Shown here piece after piece: positions 44,633 through 55,366 of a DNA stretch of 64,000 nt. Location: contig JARFNK010000001.1 in NCBI GenBank assembly GCA_029167225.1, positions 620,001 to 684,000 of the forward strand, read 5' to 3'. Position numbers and translations under genes: made by a program. Position 1 is the stretch's first letter. Each line of letters starts with the position of its first letter. The notes beneath the pieces were generated by a model, which had not been told where the DNA came from, ran no database searches, and saw only the letters and a list, made by a program, of their open reading frames with translations. Origin of the DNA: Sphingobium arseniciresistens (lineage in GTDB: Bacteria > Pseudomonadota > Alphaproteobacteria > Sphingomonadales > Sphingomonadaceae).

Positions 44633-44963
44633 GGTGGCGCCCTCCTATCGTTTTCAAATGCGAACTTTCCATTGTTATTGCGAACATATGTATTGCTATG
44701 CTTCAGTCGATTGCCATGATGCTGACGGCATGAATACGGTCATGTCGAAGAACTGCGCGCCCAAAGAATGTCAGAAGCACGATCTTGGGGAGAAGAGGGC
44801 GAGGAAGACGGCGCGTGCAGCGCTCGACATGGGATTGTCATGGCAGCGCCGCGGCTGACGTGACATCGACCATTCTGTCCGGGCGCAAAATTCCGGTTCA
44901 GGCACAGACGTTCTGTCAGTCCAGATGCGTGACCCAATGATATAAGAAATATGGAGAGTGAAG

Positions 44964-46559
44964 ATGCCTCTGTCAGCCAGGTCAAAAAAACGCCGCATCG
45001 CTTCGGCGGCCTTGTATCTTATGTCAGTAACGGCCGGGATCGGCTCAGCCCACGGTGCGGACGACATTGTCGCACCGACGCTGCAAGGCAAGGTCAGGGG
45101 CGGTAGCGCTGATGGCGTGGAATATTTCATGGGCATCCCCTACGCTGCGCCTCCGGTGGGCGACTTGCGCTGGCGTGAGCCCCAGATGCCAGCCAGTTGG
45201 GTGGATGTGCGTGATGCGACCAAGCCAGGCGCAATTTGCCCGCAGGTGGTCCGGCCGGGATCAACCGAACCAGCGCCTTCGGAGGATTGCCTGTTCATCA
45301 ACATATGGCGGCCAGCGGGCGCCAAGGCCGGGGCAAAACTTCCGGTCATGCTGTGGTATCACGGCGGCGGCATGGTGTTCGGATCGGGCAGCAGCACGGA
45401 CGGACGCTACTTCGCGCAGAAGGGCGTCATCCTCGTCACGCTCAATTATCGCCTGGGGCACCTCGGCACCTTCGCGCATCCCGCGCTGACCGCCGAAAGC
45501 CCCAACGGCTTGACCGGCAACTACACCTTGATGGACTCGGTTGCTGCCCTCAAATGGGTGCGGTCCAACATCGCCGGGTTCGGTGGTGATCCGCAAAACG
45601 TCACGATCTTCGGCTTCAGCGCAGGCGCGCAGATCGTCAACACGCTGATGGTCACGCCCAGCGCGCGCGGGCTGTTTGCCAAGGCCATCACGCAGTCGGG
45701 ACTGGGACGGAACTATGGACATCAGGGACAGAACAGGATTTTGCCGATCCGCGGTCCTGCGACCGAGACCGGAGAAAAAGCGGGGCTTGCCGTTGCCGCC
45801 AGTCTTGGTGTGCAGGGTACCGGGCCGGACGCCCTGAAAGCCCTGCGCGCTATTCCGCCAGAGCAGTTCAAGCTCGCGCCGACTTCGCTTCCCGGTTCGA
45901 TGATCGACGGCGTGCTGCTGCCGGAGCCGGTCGCGACGGCCTATCGCAACGGCCATGAGGCGCCGGTGCCACAGATCATCGGCCGGACCATCTGCGAACG
46001 GTGCGGCGTCGAAAGCATCATCAAGAATCCAGAAGCGACCTTTGTGCGCGCGAAGGCACTGCGCGACCGCGTCGTTGCGCTATATGGCAGCGAAAGCCCC
46101 AATACCGCGGTCGAATTTGCCAGCGACCTCGATCATGTCGAACCGGCCCGCTACCTCAGCCGTTTCCACGCGCACAATGGGCGGGCGACCTGGAACTATG
46201 TCTTCAACTATACCACGCCGTCCAAGCGGGGAGAGCAGAGCGGTCCGGCGCATGGGGACGATATCCCTTATATCTTCGGTACGCTGCGCAGTCCCGCCGG
46301 CCGGCGGTTCGATCCTACTGCTGCCGACATCGAGATGTCCGATGCCATGCTCACTTACTGGACGAATTTTGCCAAGACATCCAATCCCGGCACCGCTCAT
46401 GGCCTGCGCTGGACACCATTTGGGGGACCGCAGCAGGAAACCGTCATGGTGTTCACGAACGAAGGCCCGAAGCTCGACAGCAACTTCAAGAAAGAGCGGC
46501 TTGATTTGGCAGAGCAGGTAAACGACGCCATCCAGAGCCAGTCCTATGTTGCGCAATAG
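44964..46559 (+). CDS. Secreted type-B carboxylesterase
   Basis: Alpha/beta-hydrolase of the carboxylesterase type B family (relatives include the fumonisin esterase FumD of sphingomonads). ATG 44964 has GGAGAG eight bases upstream; 531 aa with a signal peptide to about residue 30. Oxyanion loop WYHGGGM, nucleophile S219 in FGFSAGAQ (Phe replaces the usual Glu), and catalytic His H430 in AHGDDIPYIF. It is convergent with the amidohydrolase gene and close to a TonB receptor, so it probably attacks an imported ester. Confidence 0.9.
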   Translation: MPLSARSKKRRIASAALYLMSVTAGIGSAHGADDIVAPTLQGKVRGGSADGVEYFMGIPYAAPPVGDLRWREPQMPASWVDVRDATKPGAICPQVVRPGSTEPAPSEDCLFINIWRPAGAKAGAKLPVMLWYHGGGMVFGSGSSTDGRYFAQKGVILVTLNYRLGHLGTFAHPALTAESPNGLTGNYTLMDSVAALKWVRSNIAGFGGDPQNVTIFGFSAGAQIVNTLMVTPSARGLFAKAITQSGLGRNYGHQGQNRILPIRGPATETGEKAGLAVAASLGVQGTGPDALKALRAIPPEQFKLAPTSLPGSMIDGVLLPEPVATAYRNGHEAPVPQIIGRTICERCGVESIIKNPEATFVRAKALRDRVVALYGSESPNTAVEFASDLDHVEPARYLSRFHAHNGRATWNYVFNYTTPSKRGEQSGPAHGDDIPYIFGTLRSPAGRRFDPTAADIEMSDAMLTYWTNFAKTSNPGTAHGLRWTPFGGPQQETVMVFTNEGPKLDSNFKKERLDLAEQVNDAIQSQSYVAQ

Positions 46560-46629
46560 ATCGTCTGGAACCGGCGGTTGAGTAACAGACAGAGCCCCGG
46601 CCAACGGCTTGGAATCTAACTGGTCCGAC

Positions 46630-46665
46630 CCTCCCGGCGGGGCACGCAGGCTTACCGCCGGGAGG
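46630..46665. terminator. Hairpin between convergent esterase and amidohydrolase genes
   Basis: CCTCCCGGCGG and CCGCCGGGAGG form a perfect 11-bp stem with a 14-nt loop, lying between two stop codons. There is no long U-run on either side, but its position suits a bidirectional terminator. Confidence 0.6.
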
Positions 46666-46679
46666 ATCGCTCTGCAGGG

Positions 46680-48464
46680 TCAGTAGAAGCGCACGTTGTC
46701 GATCTCCATCCAGATGCGGCTTCCGCTGGCCCCCGTCCCATTGATTTCCACCTGGACAAGCCCGTCGGTGTTCCAGGCCGGGCTTTTCATGCGCGCCGTG
46801 ATCACCGGCGCCAGGGACGAGAAAGGAACTTCGACGGCTTGCCACGCGTCGCTGGCCTGTAGCGGAGCCGACCAACTGCCATCCAGCCCGTTCATGACCA
46901 TCGCAAAACGGCCTGCCCCACGGATTTCGAACCGCACGCCCTTGTAGCGGCCCAGGTCCGCTGGCCGGACCGAGCCGCGGGTCAGGGGGATAGCCGCGCT
47001 GACGAATGGATCGGGCTTGTTGGCCAGCCGTGCGGACAGGCGCAACGCATGCCCATTCTCGCGCGGAACGATCTGCGTGATCTCGACCGAACGATCCGGC
47101 CCGCCATCGGGCGTCTCAAGCCGCAATGTATCCAGTGCGGAGCGGCCATCCGGCCGCTCGAAATCATCGATCAGCGGCCCGACCGTCGTCGATGGCAACC
47201 TGTCCGCCCGATTGGCGGCGGGCAAGGCCGGCGCATCGCGGCCACTCACCAGGCGACCGTCGATATAGACCTGCGAGAGCTTGTAGACGTCGGAAATGGT
47301 CTCCCACGGCTTGCCATCGATCAATATGATGTCTGCCCGCTTGCCCACCGCAATCGTGCCGCGATCCTGATCGATCCGCATCAGCTTTGCGCTCACAGAC
47401 GTTCCCGCGACCAGCGCTTCGCTCGGGGTCAGTCCGGCCTGGACCAGTAGCTCCATTTCGCGCAGGGAGGATTTCCCATGCGGCGTGCCCGGCATGCCCG
47501 CGTCCGTGCCCAGTGCGATGGGGATGCCGGCATCATGCAGGGCCTTCACGTTGAAAAGGGCGTTCTGGAATTTCGCCATGGCCTGGGCCGTGCGCAGATC
47601 GGCCGGATCGCGCGGTGGCGTGCCCGGCTTGTTGGGCTCATAGACGGCCAATGTGGGGGCCATGGCCATTCCGCTTTGCTTGATTTCCAAGACTTCCTCC
47701 GGCGTGATCCGGCGGTCCTGCATCCCGTGCGCCAGCGAATCCACGCCCGCGCGCGCCGCCTCCAGCCCACGTTCAACGGTGACGGTATGGGTGAGTACCG
47801 GCCAGTTTTGACCGTGCGCGGCCTCGACGGCCGCCTTTACCGTGTCCTCGTTCATGCTGGTGTTGTTGGGCATCATCCCATAGCGCCAGCCATCGGTGAA
47901 AATCTTGATGAGGTCAGGTTTGTAGGGGACCAGCGATCCGATGGCCGCTCGGGCCGAGTCCGGCGTATTGACCCAGATAGTGGTCATCTGGTCGGCCCAG
48001 TCCGCGCCATGGCCGCCCGGCGTGCTGAGCCGCGCGGCAAACAGCACATGCGGGCTCGCAAGACTGGCAATCCATTCCCGCCTCGGCGCAAAGGATTCGG
48101 GTTGCTGGTTGAAATCGTTAACGGTCGTGATTCCCCACTGGATGTAGGCCGTCGCGATCTGTGGCGTCCTTTCGGGTATGCCGCCGGGGGTCCAGTGGCT
48201 ATGGACATCGAAAAAGCCGGGCAGCAAGGCCTTCCCCCTTGCCTGGACGCGCCGTGCGCCCGCCGGAACCCGGATGTCCGGGCCCACTGCGGCGATGCGC
48301 CCGTTCGTCACCAGCACATCGCCCTGATAGGGCTTTGCACCGGATCCATCGAATATGGTGGCACCGATGATGGCAATGCTCTGGCTGGGCTGTCCGTTGG
48401 CTGGCACAGCCAGGAGCAAGGTCGTGGCGAGCAGCATCCTGATCGTCAAACGCGGCATGATCAT
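46680..48464 (-). CDS. Secreted amidohydrolase with C-terminal CIA30-like domain
   Basis: 594 aa with a signal peptide (1-24). Residues 28-410 are a metal-dependent amidohydrolase: VHSH with H88/H90, a bridging-lysine candidate K187 in LIKIF, H226 in LTHTV, H246 in AHGM and D321 in GTDAGMPG. All metal ligands are in place. Residues about 431-594 form a beta-sandwich starting IDDFERPDGRSALD, like the CIA30/carbohydrate-binding fold. The stop of the TonB receptor gene is 22 bp upstream, so both are probably cotranscribed. The bond cleaved may be an amide, carbamate or lactone. Confidence 0.87.
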   Translation of the reverse strand: MIMPRLTIRMLLATTLLLAVPANGQPSQSIAIIGATIFDGSGAKPYQGDVLVTNGRIAAVGPDIRVPAGARRVQARGKALLPGFFDVHSHWTPGGIPERTPQIATAYIQWGITTVNDFNQQPESFAPRREWIASLASPHVLFAARLSTPGGHGADWADQMTTIWVNTPDSARAAIGSLVPYKPDLIKIFTDGWRYGMMPNNTSMNEDTVKAAVEAAHGQNWPVLTHTVTVERGLEAARAGVDSLAHGMQDRRITPEEVLEIKQSGMAMAPTLAVYEPNKPGTPPRDPADLRTAQAMAKFQNALFNVKALHDAGIPIALGTDAGMPGTPHGKSSLREMELLVQAGLTPSEALVAGTSVSAKLMRIDQDRGTIAVGKRADIILIDGKPWETISDVYKLSQVYIDGRLVSGRDAPALPAANRADRLPSTTVGPLIDDFERPDGRSALDTLRLETPDGGPDRSVEITQIVPRENGHALRLSARLANKPDPFVSAAIPLTRGSVRPADLGRYKGVRFEIRGAGRFAMVMNGLDGSWSAPLQASDAWQAVEVPFSSLAPVITARMKSPAWNTDGLVQVEINGTGASGSRIWMEIDNVRFY

Positions 48465-48486
48465 GTTCCTGTGACTGGGCCGCGCG

Positions 48487-51400
48487 TCAGAAGCTGACAC
48501 GGGCGTTGATGTACCAATAGCGGGCGTAGGGATTGTAGACCGACGCCAGATAGCCGGCCGCCGACAGTGGCGGCTTTTCGTTCGTCAGGTTGCGAGCGCC
48601 GACGCGCAGCCGCATCGCGCCCGCCGTCGCATTCTTTATTTCGACCTGGGCATAAAGGTTGAAGGTCAGCGTATCATCGACGGTCCATGCATTGCCCGCA
48701 CCGTCAAGCAGCGTGTCGTCCAGCACCGATCCGGTATATTGGGTATATCCCCCGATCTGCACTGGCCCGGATGTCCAGGTGAGGGTGCCGCTCGCCTTCC
48801 ATCTGGGTTTTCCGCCCAGCCTGACGAGATCGCCCCCGCCCGTGATCGTCGTGCCGCGATTGATCGTGCCCGCCGCGCGCGCTGCCAGAAGTTCGGCAAT
48901 GCCGGCCGAGGGCGATCGATAGAATTTGTCGAGATAGGCCAAGTTCAGCGCCAGGTTGAAGTCCCCGATCCGCGTCCCCCGCAGGGTGTAGTTCAGGCCG
49001 AAATCCCATCCGGCCACTTTTTGCGGCAAGAGGTTCACATATTGATCCAGCGTGTAGAGGACCTGGCCCACTGGCGCGATGCCGGTATTGTTGAACGCGG
49101 CAATATCGTCGCTGGTCGGCGCAGCGCGGATGACGTTGGGATTGGAGCCCCCTTGCAGGCGCATCATATAATCCAGGATCAGCGCATTGCCTTCGCCGAA
49201 AAGGCCCACAACGCCTTTCTGCTTGATGTTCCAATAGTCCGCGGTCAGCGTCAACCGACCGAAGCGAGCGGGAATGAAGCGCGGCTCCAGCACGATGCCA
49301 CCACCAAAGGCACGCGACGTTTCCGGCTTCAGGTCTGGATTGCCCGAACGCTGCACGCTGACGGTTGTCGCCTGCGAACAGCCTGCAAAGCTGCTGATCC
49401 GTCCGGCGCGCAGGTCCGCCTCGCATCGCACCCAGTCGGTGCGGCTGTTTGCCCGCGTCACGACTGTCGTGTTGATCTGCTCGAGATTGGGTGCCTTGAA
49501 ATTCTCGGCATAGCTGCCGCGCAGTCGGATGCCGTCGACGACGTCCCATGCAGCGGCGAACTTTGGTTTGGCGACCGATCCGACGTCGCTATAATGTTCG
49601 AAGCGTCCTGCGATCTGCATCTCCAGCTTATGTACCAGAGGGATATTCATGTCCTGCGAGATGACCGGCACGGCCAGTTCGGCCCAACTCGAAAAGACCG
49701 TGCGCTTGCCATAGACGTCGGGGGACGGGCTCGTTCCCATCAGGTCGCTGGGATAGAAAGCGCCCGTAACACTGTCGGTAAAGCCAATCGTCCCGTCGAC
49801 ACGCGGATCGCGGTCATCCAACTGGGTCTCGCGCCGGATTTCTGCGCCCAGCGCCATGCCCAGATCGCCACCGGGCAGAGCGATAAGGTCGGCCCGCGAT
49901 CCCTTGATATCGGCCAGCGCCAGGGTCGACTTGCTGGCGCGCGTCGTCTTGATCCTCATCGTTTGAATGGCAACAGGGCTGCTGCCAACCGTATCGAGCC
50001 CACTGGTGTCCGTCAGGGATGAGCCATTGAACGGATTATAGGCGTCTGGCGTGGACAGGGCGAGCGCCTGTTGCAGGCCAGTGACGCTGATGCCGTCAGA
50101 CCTGTCGGTGACCTTCGCCTCGGAATACAGCGCGGCGCTTTCCCAGTCGAAACCGCCCAGCTTGAAGCGGATGCCGCCCAGCAGCCGGAACTGGCTGTTC
50201 TTGTCGACCACCACGTTGCGGCCGGTATCCGCAAAGGCCATCGTACGGATGATCACGGGCAATCCCGATGCAGGCACGTTGGTCAGGCCTGCGAGCCGGT
50301 TGGGATTGGGGGCGCCGTTGAGCAGGGTCGGGCCGAAGGGGTTCCAGTAATTGCTTGCCGGAACGGTGATGGGCACGGATGACAAGGTGCCGCTTGCCGA
50401 TTGCACGCCCACCGTCCTTGCCAGATACAAGCCCGCCTCGCCGAACAGCTCGACGTCGGGCGTCAGTTCATAATGCGCCGTCGCAAAGATATTGCCCCGC
50501 TTGACCCCGGGCATGACCGTGCTGTTCGTGGCGCGGGGCGTATCATAACGCAGTTCCCGGTCCGCCCCGGCAGTGGCGATCGCGCCGTCATCGATGCATA
50601 GCCCGTTGCCGATGCCGGCCTGGCATCCGGCAAAGTTTTGCGGCTGGACATGGAAATATCCCGCAGCGCTGGTCAGCGCCGTGCCGTTCTGCTGGATGGC
50701 TCGACTGACCCCTGCCGCCTGGAAATAGCCCCATGCCGTTGTCGTCGACCGGCCATCGAGCGATCCGGCACTGGCGAAATCGGTGCCGGCAAACAACGGG
50801 CGCCGATCGGCTGAGGCGGTATACGCCTGATCCCCCGCCAAAAGAGAGTTGCGCTCTGTGTAATCGCCAAAGATGGTGATGTTGCCGCGCCCACTTGCGA
50901 AGCCGGTTCCAATCAGGCCGTTGACGTTGAATTCACGCATATGCGTGCCTTCGGCCAAGCCATATTGGGTCTCCAGGCTCGCCCCTTCATAGTCGTCCTG
51001 CAAGACGGTGTTGACCACCCCGGCCACGGCATCCGACCCATAGATCGCACCCGCGCCATCGCGCAGCACTTCAAGCCGCTTCACGCCCGACACGGGGATG
51101 GCATTGGTGTTGTAGGTCAGGACAGGCACCAGATTGTCGTCAGCGGTACTGGCAGGATGGGTGACGACGCGGCGACCGTTCAGAAGCACGAGCGTATTGC
51201 CCACCCCCAGGTTACGCAGGTTGACCGAGCCGACATCGCCGCGCGGGGAGTTGGAACTGTTGGGAATATAGGCGCTGTTGAACGTCACATCGCCCATTTG
51301 CGGGATCGATCGGAACAGTTCGTCGCCCGAAACGGCCGCAGTCGCTGCAATCTCTTCTTCGCCGACGACGGTTACGGGCAGTGCCGCCGTGGTCTTCGCG

Positions 51401-51882
51401 CCCCTGATCTGCGATCCGACGACCACGATCTCGTTGTCCGCCGGCTCCTCCTCCTCCGACGGTGCCGCCTCGCTGGTCAGCGCGGCGCCCGATTGCAGCG
51501 CGGCCAGTTGAATGGGTGCGCCGCCATGGTTGCGAAGGCGCAGTGCCTGCTCTTCGCCGCGACTTGCCAGCGCCACGACCTTTCCCCTGATGGAGGCGAT
51601 CTTGAGAGGAGTTCCGGCCAGCAGGCGTGCCAGCGCATCTTCGGCCGACAGCGCACCGGCCAGCGATCGCGACCGGTATCCCGCGACCATCCGTGACGGA
51701 AAAAGCAGGCGATATCCGGTCTGCTTGGAAAAGCTCTGAAGCGCGTCGCTCATCGGCTGCGTAGGAATGTTGATCGCCAAGGCTTCAGCAGCAACGGCCT
51801 GCGCCTGTCCGCAGACACAGGCCGTCAAGGCCACGATGCTGGCCTGGGCGATATATAAGCGCTGCAAAAGGAAACGTGACAT
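48487..51882 (-). CDS. TonB-dependent receptor with N-terminal STN signalling domain
   Basis: Outer-membrane active transporter that also signals. ATG 51882 gives 1131 aa: signal peptide (1-32), STN domain (about 33-105: AINIPTQPMSDALQSFSKQTG), acidic linker, TonB box DNEIVVVG (149-156), plug (about 165-290: GVGNTLVLLNGRRVV, VLRDGAGAIYGSDAVAGVVN) and beta-barrel ending YWYINARVSF. The STN domain and the divergent sigma/FecR pair mark a FecA-type cell-surface-signalling system. Plug and barrel resemble receptors for oligosaccharides or aromatics more than short siderophore receptors. Confidence 0.94.
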   Translation of the reverse strand: MSRFLLQRLYIAQASIVALTACVCGQAQAVAAEALAINIPTQPMSDALQSFSKQTGYRLLFPSRMVAGYRSRSLAGALSAEDALARLLAGTPLKIASIRGKVVALASRGEEQALRLRNHGGAPIQLAALQSGAALTSEAAPSEEEEPADNEIVVVGSQIRGAKTTAALPVTVVGEEEIAATAAVSGDELFRSIPQMGDVTFNSAYIPNSSNSPRGDVGSVNLRNLGVGNTLVLLNGRRVVTHPASTADDNLVPVLTYNTNAIPVSGVKRLEVLRDGAGAIYGSDAVAGVVNTVLQDDYEGASLETQYGLAEGTHMREFNVNGLIGTGFASGRGNITIFGDYTERNSLLAGDQAYTASADRRPLFAGTDFASAGSLDGRSTTTAWGYFQAAGVSRAIQQNGTALTSAAGYFHVQPQNFAGCQAGIGNGLCIDDGAIATAGADRELRYDTPRATNSTVMPGVKRGNIFATAHYELTPDVELFGEAGLYLARTVGVQSASGTLSSVPITVPASNYWNPFGPTLLNGAPNPNRLAGLTNVPASGLPVIIRTMAFADTGRNVVVDKNSQFRLLGGIRFKLGGFDWESAALYSEAKVTDRSDGISVTGLQQALALSTPDAYNPFNGSSLTDTSGLDTVGSSPVAIQTMRIKTTRASKSTLALADIKGSRADLIALPGGDLGMALGAEIRRETQLDDRDPRVDGTIGFTDSVTGAFYPSDLMGTSPSPDVYGKRTVFSSWAELAVPVISQDMNIPLVHKLEMQIAGRFEHYSDVGSVAKPKFAAAWDVVDGIRLRGSYAENFKAPNLEQINTTVVTRANSRTDWVRCEADLRAGRISSFAGCSQATTVSVQRSGNPDLKPETSRAFGGGIVLEPRFIPARFGRLTLTADYWNIKQKGVVGLFGEGNALILDYMMRLQGGSNPNVIRAAPTSDDIAAFNNTGIAPVGQVLYTLDQYVNLLPQKVAGWDFGLNYTLRGTRIGDFNLALNLAYLDKFYRSPSAGIAELLAARAAGTINRGTTITGGGDLVRLGGKPRWKASGTLTWTSGPVQIGGYTQYTGSVLDDTLLDGAGNAWTVDDTLTFNLYAQVEIKNATAGAMRLRVGARNLTNEKPPLSAAGYLASVYNPYARYWYINARVSF

Positions 51883-52094
51883 CGGCAAATAACCCCCCGC
51901 TATTCGACTGATCCCCACTCCCCGCCTTTTCTGTCCTTCCCAATTCAGACGAATGAATTTCGAGCTGCCCCCACATGCGAGCTGCAAAAAAATGAAATTT
52001 TAGAGACTCGACATTCGGCTGCGCGCGCATTCAACTAGGCATGAAAGAACAACATTGGGGGTGAGGAACAGGCGCCAGAAGGGGGGAGGCCGAT
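51883..52094. promoter_or_regulatory. Divergent promoter region of receptor and sigma-factor genes
   Basis: A 212-bp AT-richer spacer between the two start codons. It holds a direct repeat CGAGCTGC (about 51960 and 51979) beside an A-run and an AAATTTTAG tract near 52000. These could be sigma-factor promoter elements, but I cannot define -35/-10 boxes for an unknown ECF sigma. Confidence 0.4.
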
Positions 52095-52691
52095 TTGGAA
52101 GATCCATCACGGAAACTGGCCTGGTTCAAGGCTGTCATTCTGCCCTGCCGCGCGGGATTGCGGGCGCGCATTCAGCGGATCCTGCCTCAAGGCATGGATG
52201 TGGAGGATGTGATTGCCGAAACATTGGCCCGAGCCTATGCGGTCGACAATTGGCAGGAGGTTCGCGAGGCTCCGGCCTTTCTTGCACGCATAGCGCGTAA
52301 TCTGCTGATCGATCAGGCGCGTCGCTCGGCGATCATATCCTTCGATTACATGGCCGATCTCGACCAGTTGGGCCGCGCGGTCACATATGACGGGATGTTC
52401 ACGGCCCGCGACGAACTGCGACGTCTCGAAAAAATTATAGACAGCCTGCCGGGACAGCAGCGCCGGGCCTTTCTGCTGCGCCGCGTACATGGCTATTCCA
52501 TTTCCGAAGTAGCAGCGGAAATGACTTTGACCGTCTCTACGATAGAGAAGCATCTGACTAGAGCTCTGACAACTATAGCGCGCGAACTGGCGAAAAATGA
52601 GGATCTTGCGAGTGGAGCACCACAGCGTGACCAGCATCAATCGGAAAGCGATAGAAGAGGAAGCTGCGCGTCTGGTCATTCTGCTGGATAG
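52095..52691 (+). CDS. ECF sigma factor, FecI-like
   Basis: 198 aa from a TTG start behind GGGGGGAGG. Region 2 spans about 20-85 (DVEDVIAETLARAYA, FLARIARNLLIDQARR) and region 4 about 110-165 (LPGQQRRAFLLRRVHGYSISEVAAEM, STIEKHLTRAL). The C-terminal 30 residues are low-complexity and overlap the FecR gene. It likely directs RNA polymerase to the receptor operon when FecR is activated. Confidence 0.9.
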   Translation: MEDPSRKLAWFKAVILPCRAGLRARIQRILPQGMDVEDVIAETLARAYAVDNWQEVREAPAFLARIARNLLIDQARRSAIISFDYMADLDQLGRAVTYDGMFTARDELRRLEKIIDSLPGQQRRAFLLRRVHGYSISEVAAEMTLTVSTIEKHLTRALTTIARELAKNEDLASGAPQRDQHQSESDRRGSCASGHSAG

Positions 52692-53625
52692 TGCAGCCAC
52701 TCTCGACGAACGAAATGCCGCCCATGACTGGATCAATGCCGATCCGCGCCACGCCGTGGCTTTTGCCATCGCGCAGGACGCATGGCAGCAAAGCGCCCAC
52801 GCCAGATTGAAGAATGTCGATCTGGATGGCGGCGAGCAGCCCGATGCTTCCGCTGCACTTCACGCCGAAAAGGCGGAACCGGGTGTTTCCCGCAGAAGAC
52901 TGCTCACCGGGCTATCCGCGCTGGCGGCGTCCGTCACCGGCGTAGTGGCAGTCGGCAGCGCATGGCGGTTGTTCAGCCAGCGACACAGCACCGGCCATGC
53001 CGAGCGCGCTCTGGCGCAATTGGCGGATGGATCGGCGATCACCATGAATGGCGAAACGACGCTGGATGTCGATTTGCGGGCCAACAAGCGGCTGATCCGC
53101 ATGGTGCGGGGCGAAGCGCTGTTTGATGTGGCCAAGGATCCCGATCGCCCGTTCATCATCGATCTGGACGGCGCAAAGATCGAAGTGCTGGGCACCAAGT
53201 TCAATGTCCGCAAGCGGCAGAACGGCGTCGAGCTTTCCGTTACCGAAGGGCTGGTCTCGGTATCGTCAGGGCAGGATTTCATCAAGGTTCCGGCAGGCTC
53301 GACAGCCATCATCCGCTTGGGCACCTCAGCAATGGCTGTGGCAGCCCCCAGCGTCGTTCAGCAACGCGTGGCATGGACCGAAGGGTTTCTCGAATTCGAC
53401 AACGAACCGCTGGATGAAGTGTTGGACGAATTCAACCGCTACCGGCGCGCGCCCATCATGATCGGCGATCCACGTATCGCATCCACCATGATTACGGGCA
53501 GGTTCGGGTTGAACGAGAGCAACGAATTCGTTTCTGCCCTCGAAAGCAGTTTCGACATCCGCGCGATCGCAGGCCCCGGTGGCGAGTTGAACCTGATGAA
53601 GGCGGAGGATGTGCCGATCAAATAA
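52627..53625 (+). CDS. FecR-family anti-sigma / sigma regulator
   Basis: Inner-membrane regulator that passes the signal from the receptor STN domain to the ECF sigma. GTG 52627 (MTSINRKAIEEEAARL) has GGAG nine bases upstream and is preferred over ATG 52597; 332 aa. Cytoplasmic DUF4880-like part (residues 1-75), a twin-Arg-preceded membrane segment (SRRRLLTGLSALAASVTG, about 90-108), the FecR domain (LADGSAITMN, VRGEALFDVAKD) and a C-terminal STN-like domain (FLEFDNEPLDEVLDEFNRY). It overlaps the sigma gene by 65 bp. Confidence 0.9.
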   Translation: MTSINRKAIEEEAARLVILLDSAATLDERNAAHDWINADPRHAVAFAIAQDAWQQSAHARLKNVDLDGGEQPDASAALHAEKAEPGVSRRRLLTGLSALAASVTGVVAVGSAWRLFSQRHSTGHAERALAQLADGSAITMNGETTLDVDLRANKRLIRMVRGEALFDVAKDPDRPFIIDLDGAKIEVLGTKFNVRKRQNGVELSVTEGLVSVSSGQDFIKVPAGSTAIIRLGTSAMAVAAPSVVQQRVAWTEGFLEFDNEPLDEVLDEFNRYRRAPIMIGDPRIASTMITGRFGLNESNEFVSALESSFDIRAIAGPGGELNLMKAEDVPIK

Positions 53626-53719
53626 TGCCTGTCACTGGAACCCCATGATTGGTTCACGAATGTCCGCCATTCATCTCATCCGCCAGATAAATCGCGCTCA
53701 TGCTGGCAATGCGCTGCTC

Positions 53720-54442
53720 TCATGGGCGCTCGACCACCCTGAACACCGCGCCGCTCCCGGCATCACGAACGAGATCGACCCGTTTGCCGTCCCAATGATA
53801 ATCGAGATGCCGGCCCTGAACCGGGCTGGACGCACAATCTGGATAGAAGAGCGCGACACATTCGCCGCCAGCCTGCCGGACGCTCGGATAGGCGATGCCA
53901 TCTGAACCTGCGCCGCGCAGGTGCGCGGCGAACTGCTGGGCCATCCCGTAATTGTCAGGATCAAGGCAGGGTCCGAATGCAGCGTCGCCTCCCCGAAGGT
54001 CGTGCAGCCTGGCATCGACCTTCAGGATGATTTCGCGGAACTGCGAGGTCCAGCCGGAGCGCTCCGCCGTCCTGGCCATGAAGCGCGCATGATGATGGAT
54101 CGTCTCGAACAGCGCGGCTTCATAACTGCGCGCGACATAGAGCACTCCATAACGCCCGTCCGAGAAGTGGCTCGGCCGATCGGGACTGACATGGGTGAAC
54201 GACGCCATCAGATAGGATGCGCCGACACCGCCGACCCGTCGCGCGGGCGGAACAAGGTCGATATTGCCCACGGATGGCATGATCCGCGGGTTCGTCTTCT
54301 GCTCGGCCGAAATGAGCAGGGGCCAGTCGGCGGGATCAGCAATATCCTCGAACAGATCGATCGGGGGATAGATGCTGCGGATGATCCTGACCGCACCGTC
54401 CCATTCGATCCTGTGGACGGGCGGTGGCCCTGCTGCCTTCAC
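53720..54442 (-). CDS. RES-domain toxin (NAD+ phosphorylase family)
   Basis: 240 aa. The RES domain (about 75-220) shows SHFSDGRYGVLYVARSYE with AALFET downstream, holding the Arg/Tyr/Glu cluster of the active site. SDGIAYPSVRQAGGECVALF follows. Known members deplete NAD+ by phosphorolysis or hydrolysis. Its start overlaps the stop of the antitoxin gene by 4 bp, the usual antitoxin-first order. Confidence 0.88.
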   Translation of the reverse strand: MKAAGPPPVHRIEWDGAVRIIRSIYPPIDLFEDIADPADWPLLISAEQKTNPRIMPSVGNIDLVPPARRVGGVGASYLMASFTHVSPDRPSHFSDGRYGVLYVARSYEAALFETIHHHARFMARTAERSGWTSQFREIILKVDARLHDLRGGDAAFGPCLDPDNYGMAQQFAAHLRGAGSDGIAYPSVRQAGGECVALFYPDCASSPVQGRHLDYHWDGKRVDLVRDAGSGAVFRVVERP

Positions 54443-54852
54443 CAGCCGCCCCGCTCCGCATCGAGATAGCGGCGCACGCGCATGATATCGGTCAGTTCCC
54501 CGCCCAGCATGACCGCCAGCGCGGTTGAACCATCGAAAGCGATATTCGACGCCTTGATCCAGTCATAGCCCCGCTGCGGTTCTTGAAAGATGAGCCGGAG
54601 CGCCTTGTGGATACCCATCAGGTTGGAGAGCCGGGCAAGTCCATCCCGCGACATGCGCCCGGACCCATCCGCTTTCCACCGACGAAACGTCCGCACCGGC
54701 ATATCGGTCAGAATAGCGGCCTGCTCATCCGTGATGCCCCATTTGGCGAACAGATTGAGGGCCGCGCGAAACATTGCGGCGCCTTCCTCCTGAGTGAGGG
54801 GCTCCGGCCGGAACGGTGCAGGAGCTGTTTCAATGGGTTCCAACATCACCAT
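54439..54852 (-). CDS. Xre/MbcA/ParS-type antitoxin
   Basis: 137 aa from ATG 54852 (MVMLEPIETAP); ATG 54846 is equally possible. An N-terminal helix-turn-helix (FAKWGITDEQAAILTDMPVR, TFRRWK) is followed by the DUF2384 C-terminal toxin-binding part (RLSNLMGIHKALRLIFQ, LMLGGEL-like VMLGGELTDIMRVRRYLD). It should neutralise the RES toxin and repress the pair's promoter. Confidence 0.88.
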   Translation of the reverse strand: MVMLEPIETAPAPFRPEPLTQEEGAAMFRAALNLFAKWGITDEQAAILTDMPVRTFRRWKADGSGRMSRDGLARLSNLMGIHKALRLIFQEPQRGYDWIKASNIAFDGSTALAVMLGGELTDIMRVRRYLDAERGGW

Positions 54853-54901
54853 ATGATATCTCCATATGACATCATATAGTCCAATCATTGCCAAATGGCA
54901 A
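54850..54901 (-). promoter_or_regulatory. Promoter and operator of the toxin-antitoxin pair
   Basis: On the minus strand TTGCCA (54896-54901) and TATATG (54873-54878) are exactly 17 bp apart. ATATGA-TG-TCATAT, an inverted repeat, overlaps the -10 box, and another CATATG/GATATC cluster lies just downstream at the start codon. This placement fits autorepression by the antitoxin. Confidence 0.7.
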
Positions 54902-55290: not shown

Positions 55291-55366
55291 TGGTGCCCGG
55301 GGACGGATTCGAACCGCCGACACTGCGATTTTCAGTCGCATGCTCTACCAACTGAGCTACCCGGGC
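55291..55366 (-). tRNA. tRNA-Phe (anticodon GAA)
   Basis: 76 nt including an encoded CCA. The acceptor stem GCCCGGG pairs with CCCGGGC, the D-arm reads GCTCAGTTGGTAGAGC, the anticodon loop CTGAAAA holds GAA, and the T-arm contains GGTTCGAATCC. All stems close without mismatches that I can see. Confidence 0.97.

What the first reader, a model, noticed from the sequence alone, without database searches (positions are those of the whole stretch)
44964..53625. Cell-surface-signalling locus pairing a large TonB receptor with a secreted esterase and amidohydrolase
An STN-containing TonB receptor, a FecI-like sigma, a FecR regulator, an amidohydrolase 22 bp after the receptor and a type-B carboxylesterase converging on it occupy 8.7 kb. 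Established: FecA/FecI/FecR systems usually serve siderophores or glycans, and in sphingomonads a type-B esterase beside a TonB receptor starts fumonisin breakdown (fum cluster). Inference: this locus senses, imports and hydrolyses a xenobiotic or natural ester/amide, and the substrate is undescribed.
Basis: partly seen in the sequence, partly recalled or inferred. Interest (0 to 1): 0.75.

Follow-up and report, generated by a model that had tools for sequence, protein, structure and literature searches.

The report
Signal-switched peptide-uptake locus in a sphingomonad
A sphingomonad bacterium carries an outer-membrane import gate with its own on-switch and a secreted amide-cutting enzyme; relatives in other bacteria pair the same kind of gate with peptide-digesting enzymes, so it most likely feeds on peptides, and the esterase next door is probably only a neighbour.

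Summary
The five genes are real and placed as described. ECF sigma, FecR, STN-receptor and amidohydrolase are a conserved unit: in named Sphingomonas loci the same divergent FecR-ECF / receptor arrangement continues as receptor, Met-zincin protease, amidohydrolase. Of 77 relatives of the amidohydrolase in public genomes, 57 have a receptor of this family and 46 at least one of a set of peptidases (M14, Met-zincin, M20, gamma-glutamyltransferase) in the fetched stretch. Its predicted fold is closest to dipeptidases and carboxypeptidases. Peptides or peptide-like amides are the best-supported substrate class; none was tested.

The esterase does not belong to the unit on comparative evidence: homologs in 2 of 77 loci, weak and about 6.5 kb off; at least 5 of 10 relatives sit near GH3 glycosidases; the receptor's promoter motif is not upstream of it. 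FumD is its closest solved relative, but a distant one.

Side result: STN domain and adjacent sigma/FecR genes agree in 78 of 80 receptor ORFs, with at least five switches on the tree. Substrate and co-regulation remain untested at the bench.

The parts
44964..46559 (+). type-B carboxylesterase, signal-peptide-like N-terminus, triad Ser219-Glu345-His430; probably a neighbour, not a member of the unit
   Evidence: context
46626..46669 (.). inverted repeat (15-nt arms, 93% complementary) between the convergent esterase and amidohydrolase; terminator-like stem; not among the terminator-like sites with a T run found by the scan
46680..48464 (-). secreted amidohydrolase of the cog1228 dipeptidase kind with a C-terminal CIA30-like beta domain
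48487..51882 (-). TonB-dependent transducer (STN + plug + barrel), 1131 aa
51948..51974 (-). receptor promoter-like element GTGGGGGCAG-N13-CGTC, aligned at the same place in L093 (one base differs in the first block), L094 and L095; inferred target of the ECF sigma
52095..52691 (+). ECF sigma factor (FecI-like); TTG start, with GTG or TTG at the matching place in L093, L094 and L110 as read by eye
52627..53625 (+). FecR anti-sigma regulator, overlaps the sigma gene; FecR domain, DUF4880 just under its cut-off

Best explanation
This is a cell-surface-signalling (TonB-dependent transducer) locus for acquiring peptides or peptide-like amides. Inferred mechanism: substrate binds the receptor barrel; the N-terminal STN domain changes its contact with the periplasmic end of FecR; FecR is processed and the ECF sigma is released; the sigma transcribes the receptor-amidohydrolase operon from the GTGGGGGNAG-N13-CGTC promoter. 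The receptor imports the substrate into the periplasm, where the secreted amidohydrolase cuts it, most likely as an exopeptidase or N-acyl-amino-acid hydrolase. In relatives a Met-zincin, M14, M20 or gamma-glutamyltransferase partner does earlier or parallel cuts; in this genome none of these is in the locus (two Met-zincins lie elsewhere). Shown: gene content, domain content, conserved linkage, predicted fold. Inferred: order of signalling, sigma target, substrate class. The esterase is an independent neighbour in a variable region beside tRNA-Phe.
Confidence: 0.68

Rival explanations
1. One reading: receptor, amidohydrolase and esterase form one pathway for a compound with both ester and amide bonds, a xenobiotic or natural product; the esterase acts outside or in the periplasm as FumD does.
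For: Closeness and convergence; the three proteins look exported; the closest solved relative of the esterase is FumD (8s6d, E 5.4e-71); esterase, amidohydrolase, receptor, sigma, FecR and the RES/Xre pair share a lowered GC3 (0.58-0.79 against 0.82-0.89 in six flanking genes); an esterase paralog (51%) follows another receptor within about 0.1 kb in the same genome (L048); weak esterase homologs about 6.5 kb from the amidohydrolase in L040, L134 and L175.
Against: No esterase homolog at E 1e-100 in any of 93 other genus genomes; weak homologs in only 2 of 77 (155 and 169 bits, other strand) and 1 of 19 earlier amidohydrolase loci (152 bits, same strand), and 0 of 13 receptor-centred loci (L093-L105); 0 of 10 esterase loci carry the window receptor family at 300 bits or any of the peptidases; receptor promoter motif absent upstream of the esterase at up to two substitutions.
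Confidence: 0.2
2. The locus serves peptidoglycan fragments: the receptor takes up muropeptides and the amidohydrolase cuts their peptide part.
For: About 40%-identical relatives of like length sit in L041-L047; proteins of L041 and L043 match MurQ, PBP4 and DgcA models above cut-off, and NagK, AmpG and DgcN models below cut-off; an S13 protein is in 7 of 7 of these loci.
Against: In 5 of those 7 loci the receptor found is of another family (TBDRc12 type), in 2 none was found; the S13 reference had no match in the 77 loci of the closer relatives. AmpG and MurQ were not searched for there.
Confidence: 0.12
3. It is a siderophore or other metal-chelate signalling system like FecA/FecI/FecR, and the hydrolase releases the metal from an imported chelate.
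For: Same three-part signalling core; STN matches to HasR, FoxA and pseudobactin receptors; FecR matches NF007296, below cut-off.
Against: The receptor reaches the cut-off of none of the 16 NCBIfam models it matches; recurring partners are peptidases.
Confidence: 0.08

Closest known systems
FecA/FecI/FecR and FoxA/FoxI/FoxR cell-surface signalling (PMC11637429, abstract and passages seen)
   Same: STN receptor, ECF sigma, FecR-type regulator; the paper says the signalling domain is absent from receptors not involved in signalling
   Different: siderophore ligands there; here the partner enzyme is an amidohydrolase and in relatives peptidases; receptor below the siderophore-family cut-offs of NCBIfam
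cog1228 dipeptidases/carboxypeptidases (3mtw Cc2672, 2p9b, 2qs8, 3be7, 3n2c)
   Different: 24-27% identity in the aligned part; extra C-terminal domain of about 170 residues with a sub-threshold CIA30 match; part of a receptor operon
Fumonisin esterase FumD (8s6d) and the fum cluster (cluster recalled)
   Same: type-B carboxylesterase family; a TonB receptor near by
   Different: 243 bits to FumD but 588 and 468 to other sphingomonad esterases; Gly-Phe-Ser-Ala-Gly in place of Gly-Glu-Ser-Ala-Gly; no other fum gene recognised by eye in the ORF list of 41-57 kb, not searched by profile
RagAB peptide importer of Porphyromonas (PMC11817032, search listing and start of abstract)
   Same: TonB-dependent import of peptides or protein by a large barrel
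   Different: works with a lid protein RagB; here no lid gene was recognised, and there is an STN/ECF switch
metal-dependent bile salt hydrolases BwBSH (PMC13081902, preprint, passages seen)
   Same: secreted amidohydrolase with extra C-terminal domain that cuts amide conjugates; 3mtw named as a near structural homolog
   Different: PF07969/YtcJ branch; not compared by sequence here
Caenibius tardaugens bile-salt cluster bsd I (PMC12882949, passages seen)
   Same: sphingomonad with an induced amidohydrolase and induced TonB receptors during growth on cholate
   Different: its amidohydrolase EGO55_16305 has no predicted secretion signal and its cluster has a TetR regulator; not compared by sequence here

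Membership tests
TonB-dependent transducer / cell-surface signalling system | receptor with STN domain before the plug | tested here: met
   PF07660 29.6 bits, cut-off 28.4
TonB-dependent transducer / cell-surface signalling system | adjacent ECF sigma and FecR-type anti-sigma | tested here: met
   PF04542/PF08281 and PF04773; in relatives 18 of 18 receptors with STN by my cut-off have sigma or FecR adjacent
TonB-dependent transducer / cell-surface signalling system | sigma drives the receptor gene in response to substrate | not testable with these tools
   only a conserved promoter-like element
FecI/FecR/FecA of ferric citrate (equivalogs) | NCBIfam cut-offs for FecI, FecR, FecA | tested here: not met
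   FecI 59.8 of 260 bits, FecR 103.5 of 385, FecA 33.9 of 1100
cog1228 amidohydrolase exopeptidases | amidohydrolase fold with metal-site residues of the binuclear kind (recalled) | tested here: met
cog1228 amidohydrolase exopeptidases | Xaa-Pro dipeptidase equivalog cut-off (NF051886) | tested here: not met
   118.6 of 500 bits
cog1228 amidohydrolase exopeptidases | dipeptidase or carboxypeptidase activity | not testable with these tools
   no assay
CIA30 domain proteins | C-terminal domain reaches Pfam PF08547 gathering score | tested here: not met
   20.7 bits, cut-off 24, E 0.00045; the model is nearly all beta there
FumD-type fumonisin esterase / fum cluster | type-B carboxylesterase with intact triad | tested here: met
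FumD-type fumonisin esterase / fum cluster | fum cluster companions (aminotransferase fumI and others, recalled) | tested here: inconclusive
   none recognised by eye in the ORF list of 41-57 kb; not searched by profile
Muropeptide recycling cluster | AmpG, MurQ or PBP4 among the neighbours | tested here: inconclusive
   not among the seven window proteins of 44958-54894 scanned with Pfam and NCBIfam; genes further out were only read by eye

The most novel reading that the evidence does not exclude
A peptide-uptake core (transducer, sigma, FecR, amidohydrolase) that lacks its Met-zincin gene and gained an esterase at a tRNA-Phe variable site, and so was retuned to a depsipeptide or other compound with both ester and amide bonds. 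To my knowledge (recalled, not searched as such) no cell-surface-signalling receptor is tied to such a natural product.
Probability: 0.12. Interest if true: 0.7.

Novelty: new variant of a known kind. Interest (0 to 1): 0.4.

Why it matters
Sphingomonads and Caulobacter carry many TonB receptors with unknown ligands. A receptor family that keeps company with peptidases in Sphingomonadales, Caulobacterales and some Xanthomonadales loci, and in which STN domain and sigma/FecR pair come and go together, gives a testable ligand class (peptides or peptide-like amides) and matched regulated and unregulated receptors for studying how signalling is added to transport.

Tried and rejected
Esterase as a conserved member: looked for in 94 genus genomes at E 1e-100 (own only), in 149 family genomes (10 at 1e-80), in 397 family genomes (2 at 1e-105: own and G262; only the 3 best candidates of a genome were scored) and in the stretches of 77 + 19 + 13 loci. 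Rejected as a conserved member; three weak, distant homologs remain (L040, L134, L175). Plasmid origin: no amidohydrolase match at 1e-60; esterase matches on 40 plasmid records, all under 60%, best listed row 41.8%. Island with att repeats: 7 of the 12 same-genus relatives were fetched; all 7 have tRNA-Phe and none has the locus there, but no direct repeat of the tRNA end was found. In nine same-genus relatives uvrB and tRNA-Phe lie on different contigs or over 100 kb apart, so no empty site could be named. Sigma regulon by motif: 3 exact matches in the genome against 1 for the reversed pattern; the other two lie in or at the start of called coding sequence, so the motif is not shown to act beyond this locus. 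Literature on this arrangement: the listings showed no paper that names it (judged from titles and abstract starts); most subscription journals are not held. FumD active-site literature: one paper, on another enzyme. Families not in the VIA table are not taken as excluded.

Counting notes. One search used 77 of the 80 loci; L184-L186 (29-32% identity) were dropped before counting. The AH and esterase locus sets were not drawn in the same way, so their contrast is no formal test. One search holds 80 ORFs, with five genomes present twice (L060/L121, L063/L142, L066/L116, L067/L119, L068/L179, judged from equal contig lengths and scores). Its off-diagonal rows: L156 (STN score 13, under my cut-off of 15, sigma adjacent) and L117 (receptor ORF split, N-terminal part in another ORF). 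The tree used 73 rows, window included: one of each duplicate, L117, L131 and L141 are not in it; L156 was labelled STN by hand; the sigma labels were typed and are the same list. The tree is a quick search with a simple model, and the window row is on a long branch without a starred place.
Full report
What is there. The receptor's listed ORF starts earlier, but the signal-peptide-like start is the ATG at 51882. The 22-bp gap to the amidohydrolase is exact. Sigma and FecR overlap, as in the orthologous loci.

The conserved unit. I searched for the amidohydrolase in 94 genus genomes: 12 hold it at E 1e-80, the window's included. In all 11 others the same receptor family lies in the fetched stretch (949-1211 bits). 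Between receptor and amidohydrolase there is a Met-zincin (DUF5117/DUF4953; 8 of 11) or a gamma-glutamyltransferase (3 of 11), and an M14 carboxypeptidase follows in 10 of 11; L063, on a short contig, shows no M14 (Pfam on representatives). In 10 of these 11 loci a sigma/FecR pair lies further off, but of another subgroup (ECF 55-66 bits) and next to another receptor type.

The nearest matches in arrangement come from named genomes: Sphingomonas sp. PP-CE-3G-477 (L110), UBA978 (L113), HJP_bin13 (L115), 67-36 (L117) and S. lycopersici (L120; near-identical to L115). They run FecR, ECF on one strand and receptor, Met-zincin, amidohydrolase on the other, the last two overlapping by four bases. 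FecR is 42-48%, ECF 48-55%, receptor 53-57% (L117 in part only, its ORF is split) and amidohydrolase 61-64% identical to the window's proteins by BLASTP. The window locus is this unit without the Met-zincin. Two Met-zincins lie elsewhere in the genome, one of them near three M20-type genes and another receptor.

Three same-genus receptor-sigma-FecR trios (L093, L094, L095) have an M20 peptidase gene 17-28 bp after the receptor where the window has the amidohydrolase (family models run on L093's). So two unrelated families of amide hydrolases fill the same slot behind orthologous signalling receptors.

Over the 77 public loci with an amidohydrolase of at least 48% identity, 57 have the receptor family at 300 bits or more, 46 have at least one of the peptidases searched for at 100 bits or more (Met-zincin 24, M14 16, M20b 13, GGT 8), 74 have a receptor or a peptidase, and 3 (L114, L135, L178) have neither. 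Sixteen of the 77 stretches are under 20 kb. As a contrast, 10 esterase-centred loci have none of the peptidases and none of the window's receptor family at that score. The two sets were not drawn in the same way, so this is a contrast and not a formal test.

Signalling. In 80 receptor ORFs of this family, 18 have STN by my cut-off and all 18 have sigma or FecR adjacent; 60 lack STN and have neither adjacent; two rows are off the diagonal, both with a plain reason. On the tree the STN state changes 7 times, at least 5 of them forced by well-supported branches; in 5 of 5 independent pairs the sigma pair follows (five pairs cannot reach p 0.05). That the signalling domain is absent from receptors that do not signal is known (PMC11637429, passages seen); the repeated switch within one receptor family is what these data add. 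Upstream of the receptor, GTGGGGGNAG-N13-CGTC is found at the aligned place in L094 and L095, and in L093 with one base different; it occurs three times in the genome, against one for the reversed pattern. It is a candidate target of the sigma, no more. Sigma control is inferred.

The esterase. But FumD is a distant relative (243 bits) compared with a 55% homolog in another genus (588 bits) and a 51% paralog in the same genome (468 bits). The 55% homolog lies with an MFS transporter, an SMP-30/gluconolactonase-like protein, a PQQ-domain protein, an IclR regulator, a receptor and, about 7 kb off, a GH3 glycosidase. At least five of the ten esterase loci have a GH3 protein near (L049; L050, L051, L053, L057; not all neighbours were scanned). 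No esterase homolog at E 1e-100 was found in 93 other genus genomes. It converges on the amidohydrolase with an inverted repeat between and lacks the receptor's promoter motif. I read it as a neighbour. What speaks for the other reading: esterase included, the genes of the stretch have lower GC3 than six flanking genes, so they may have arrived together; weak esterase homologs lie about 6.5 kb from the amidohydrolase in L040 (same strand), L134 and L175 (other strand); and the own-genome paralog follows another receptor directly (L048).

Setting. The stretch lies on the 3' side of tRNA-Phe (55291-55366). Of 12 same-genus relatives located I fetched 7; all 7 have tRNA-Phe there, none has the locus, and by eye their genes on that side differ from one another. 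Between locus and tRNA is a RES/Xre toxin-antitoxin pair with an 88-90% identical pair at the same tRNA in L192. So the locus is in a variable site; no att repeats were found.

Verdict. The likely function is regulated uptake and cutting of peptides or peptide-like amides. The esterase is probably not part of it. This is a variant of a known kind of system: unassayed, and notable for its peptidase company, but not a new principle.

Noticed in passing
window 53720-54894 (-): RES toxin / Xre antitoxin pair between the FecR gene and tRNA-Phe; 88-90% identical pair beside tRNA-Phe in L192.
   Followed up: partly
window 55291-55366 (-): tRNA-Phe whose 3' side holds other genes in 7 of 7 fetched same-genus genomes; some look like integrases by eye (L191, L195). 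A probable integration hot spot.
   Followed up: partly
L048:5934-10563: In the same genome a receptor is followed within about 0.1 kb by a paralog (51%) of the esterase, with an S15-type hydrolase and a luciferase-like monooxygenase near: a better candidate for a receptor-esterase pathway than the window locus.
   Followed up: partly
L041-L047: Muropeptide-type clusters (MurQ, PBP4, AmpG-like and others scanned in L041 and L043) that include a 40% relative of the amidohydrolase and in 5 of 7 a receptor: candidate peptidoglycan-scavenging loci with their own outer-membrane receptor.
   Followed up: partly
L112:3344-16344: Polymorphobacter locus with a penicillin-amidase protein, receptor, amidohydrolase, gamma-glutamyltransferase and M14 carboxypeptidase in a row.
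   Followed up: no
L107:7612-12182: Novosphingobium locus with two further weakly amidohydrolase-like genes between receptor and amidohydrolase.
   Followed up: no
L202:533-12095: Own genome: three M20-type genes in tandem beside a receptor and a Met-zincin; another likely peptide locus.
   Followed up: no
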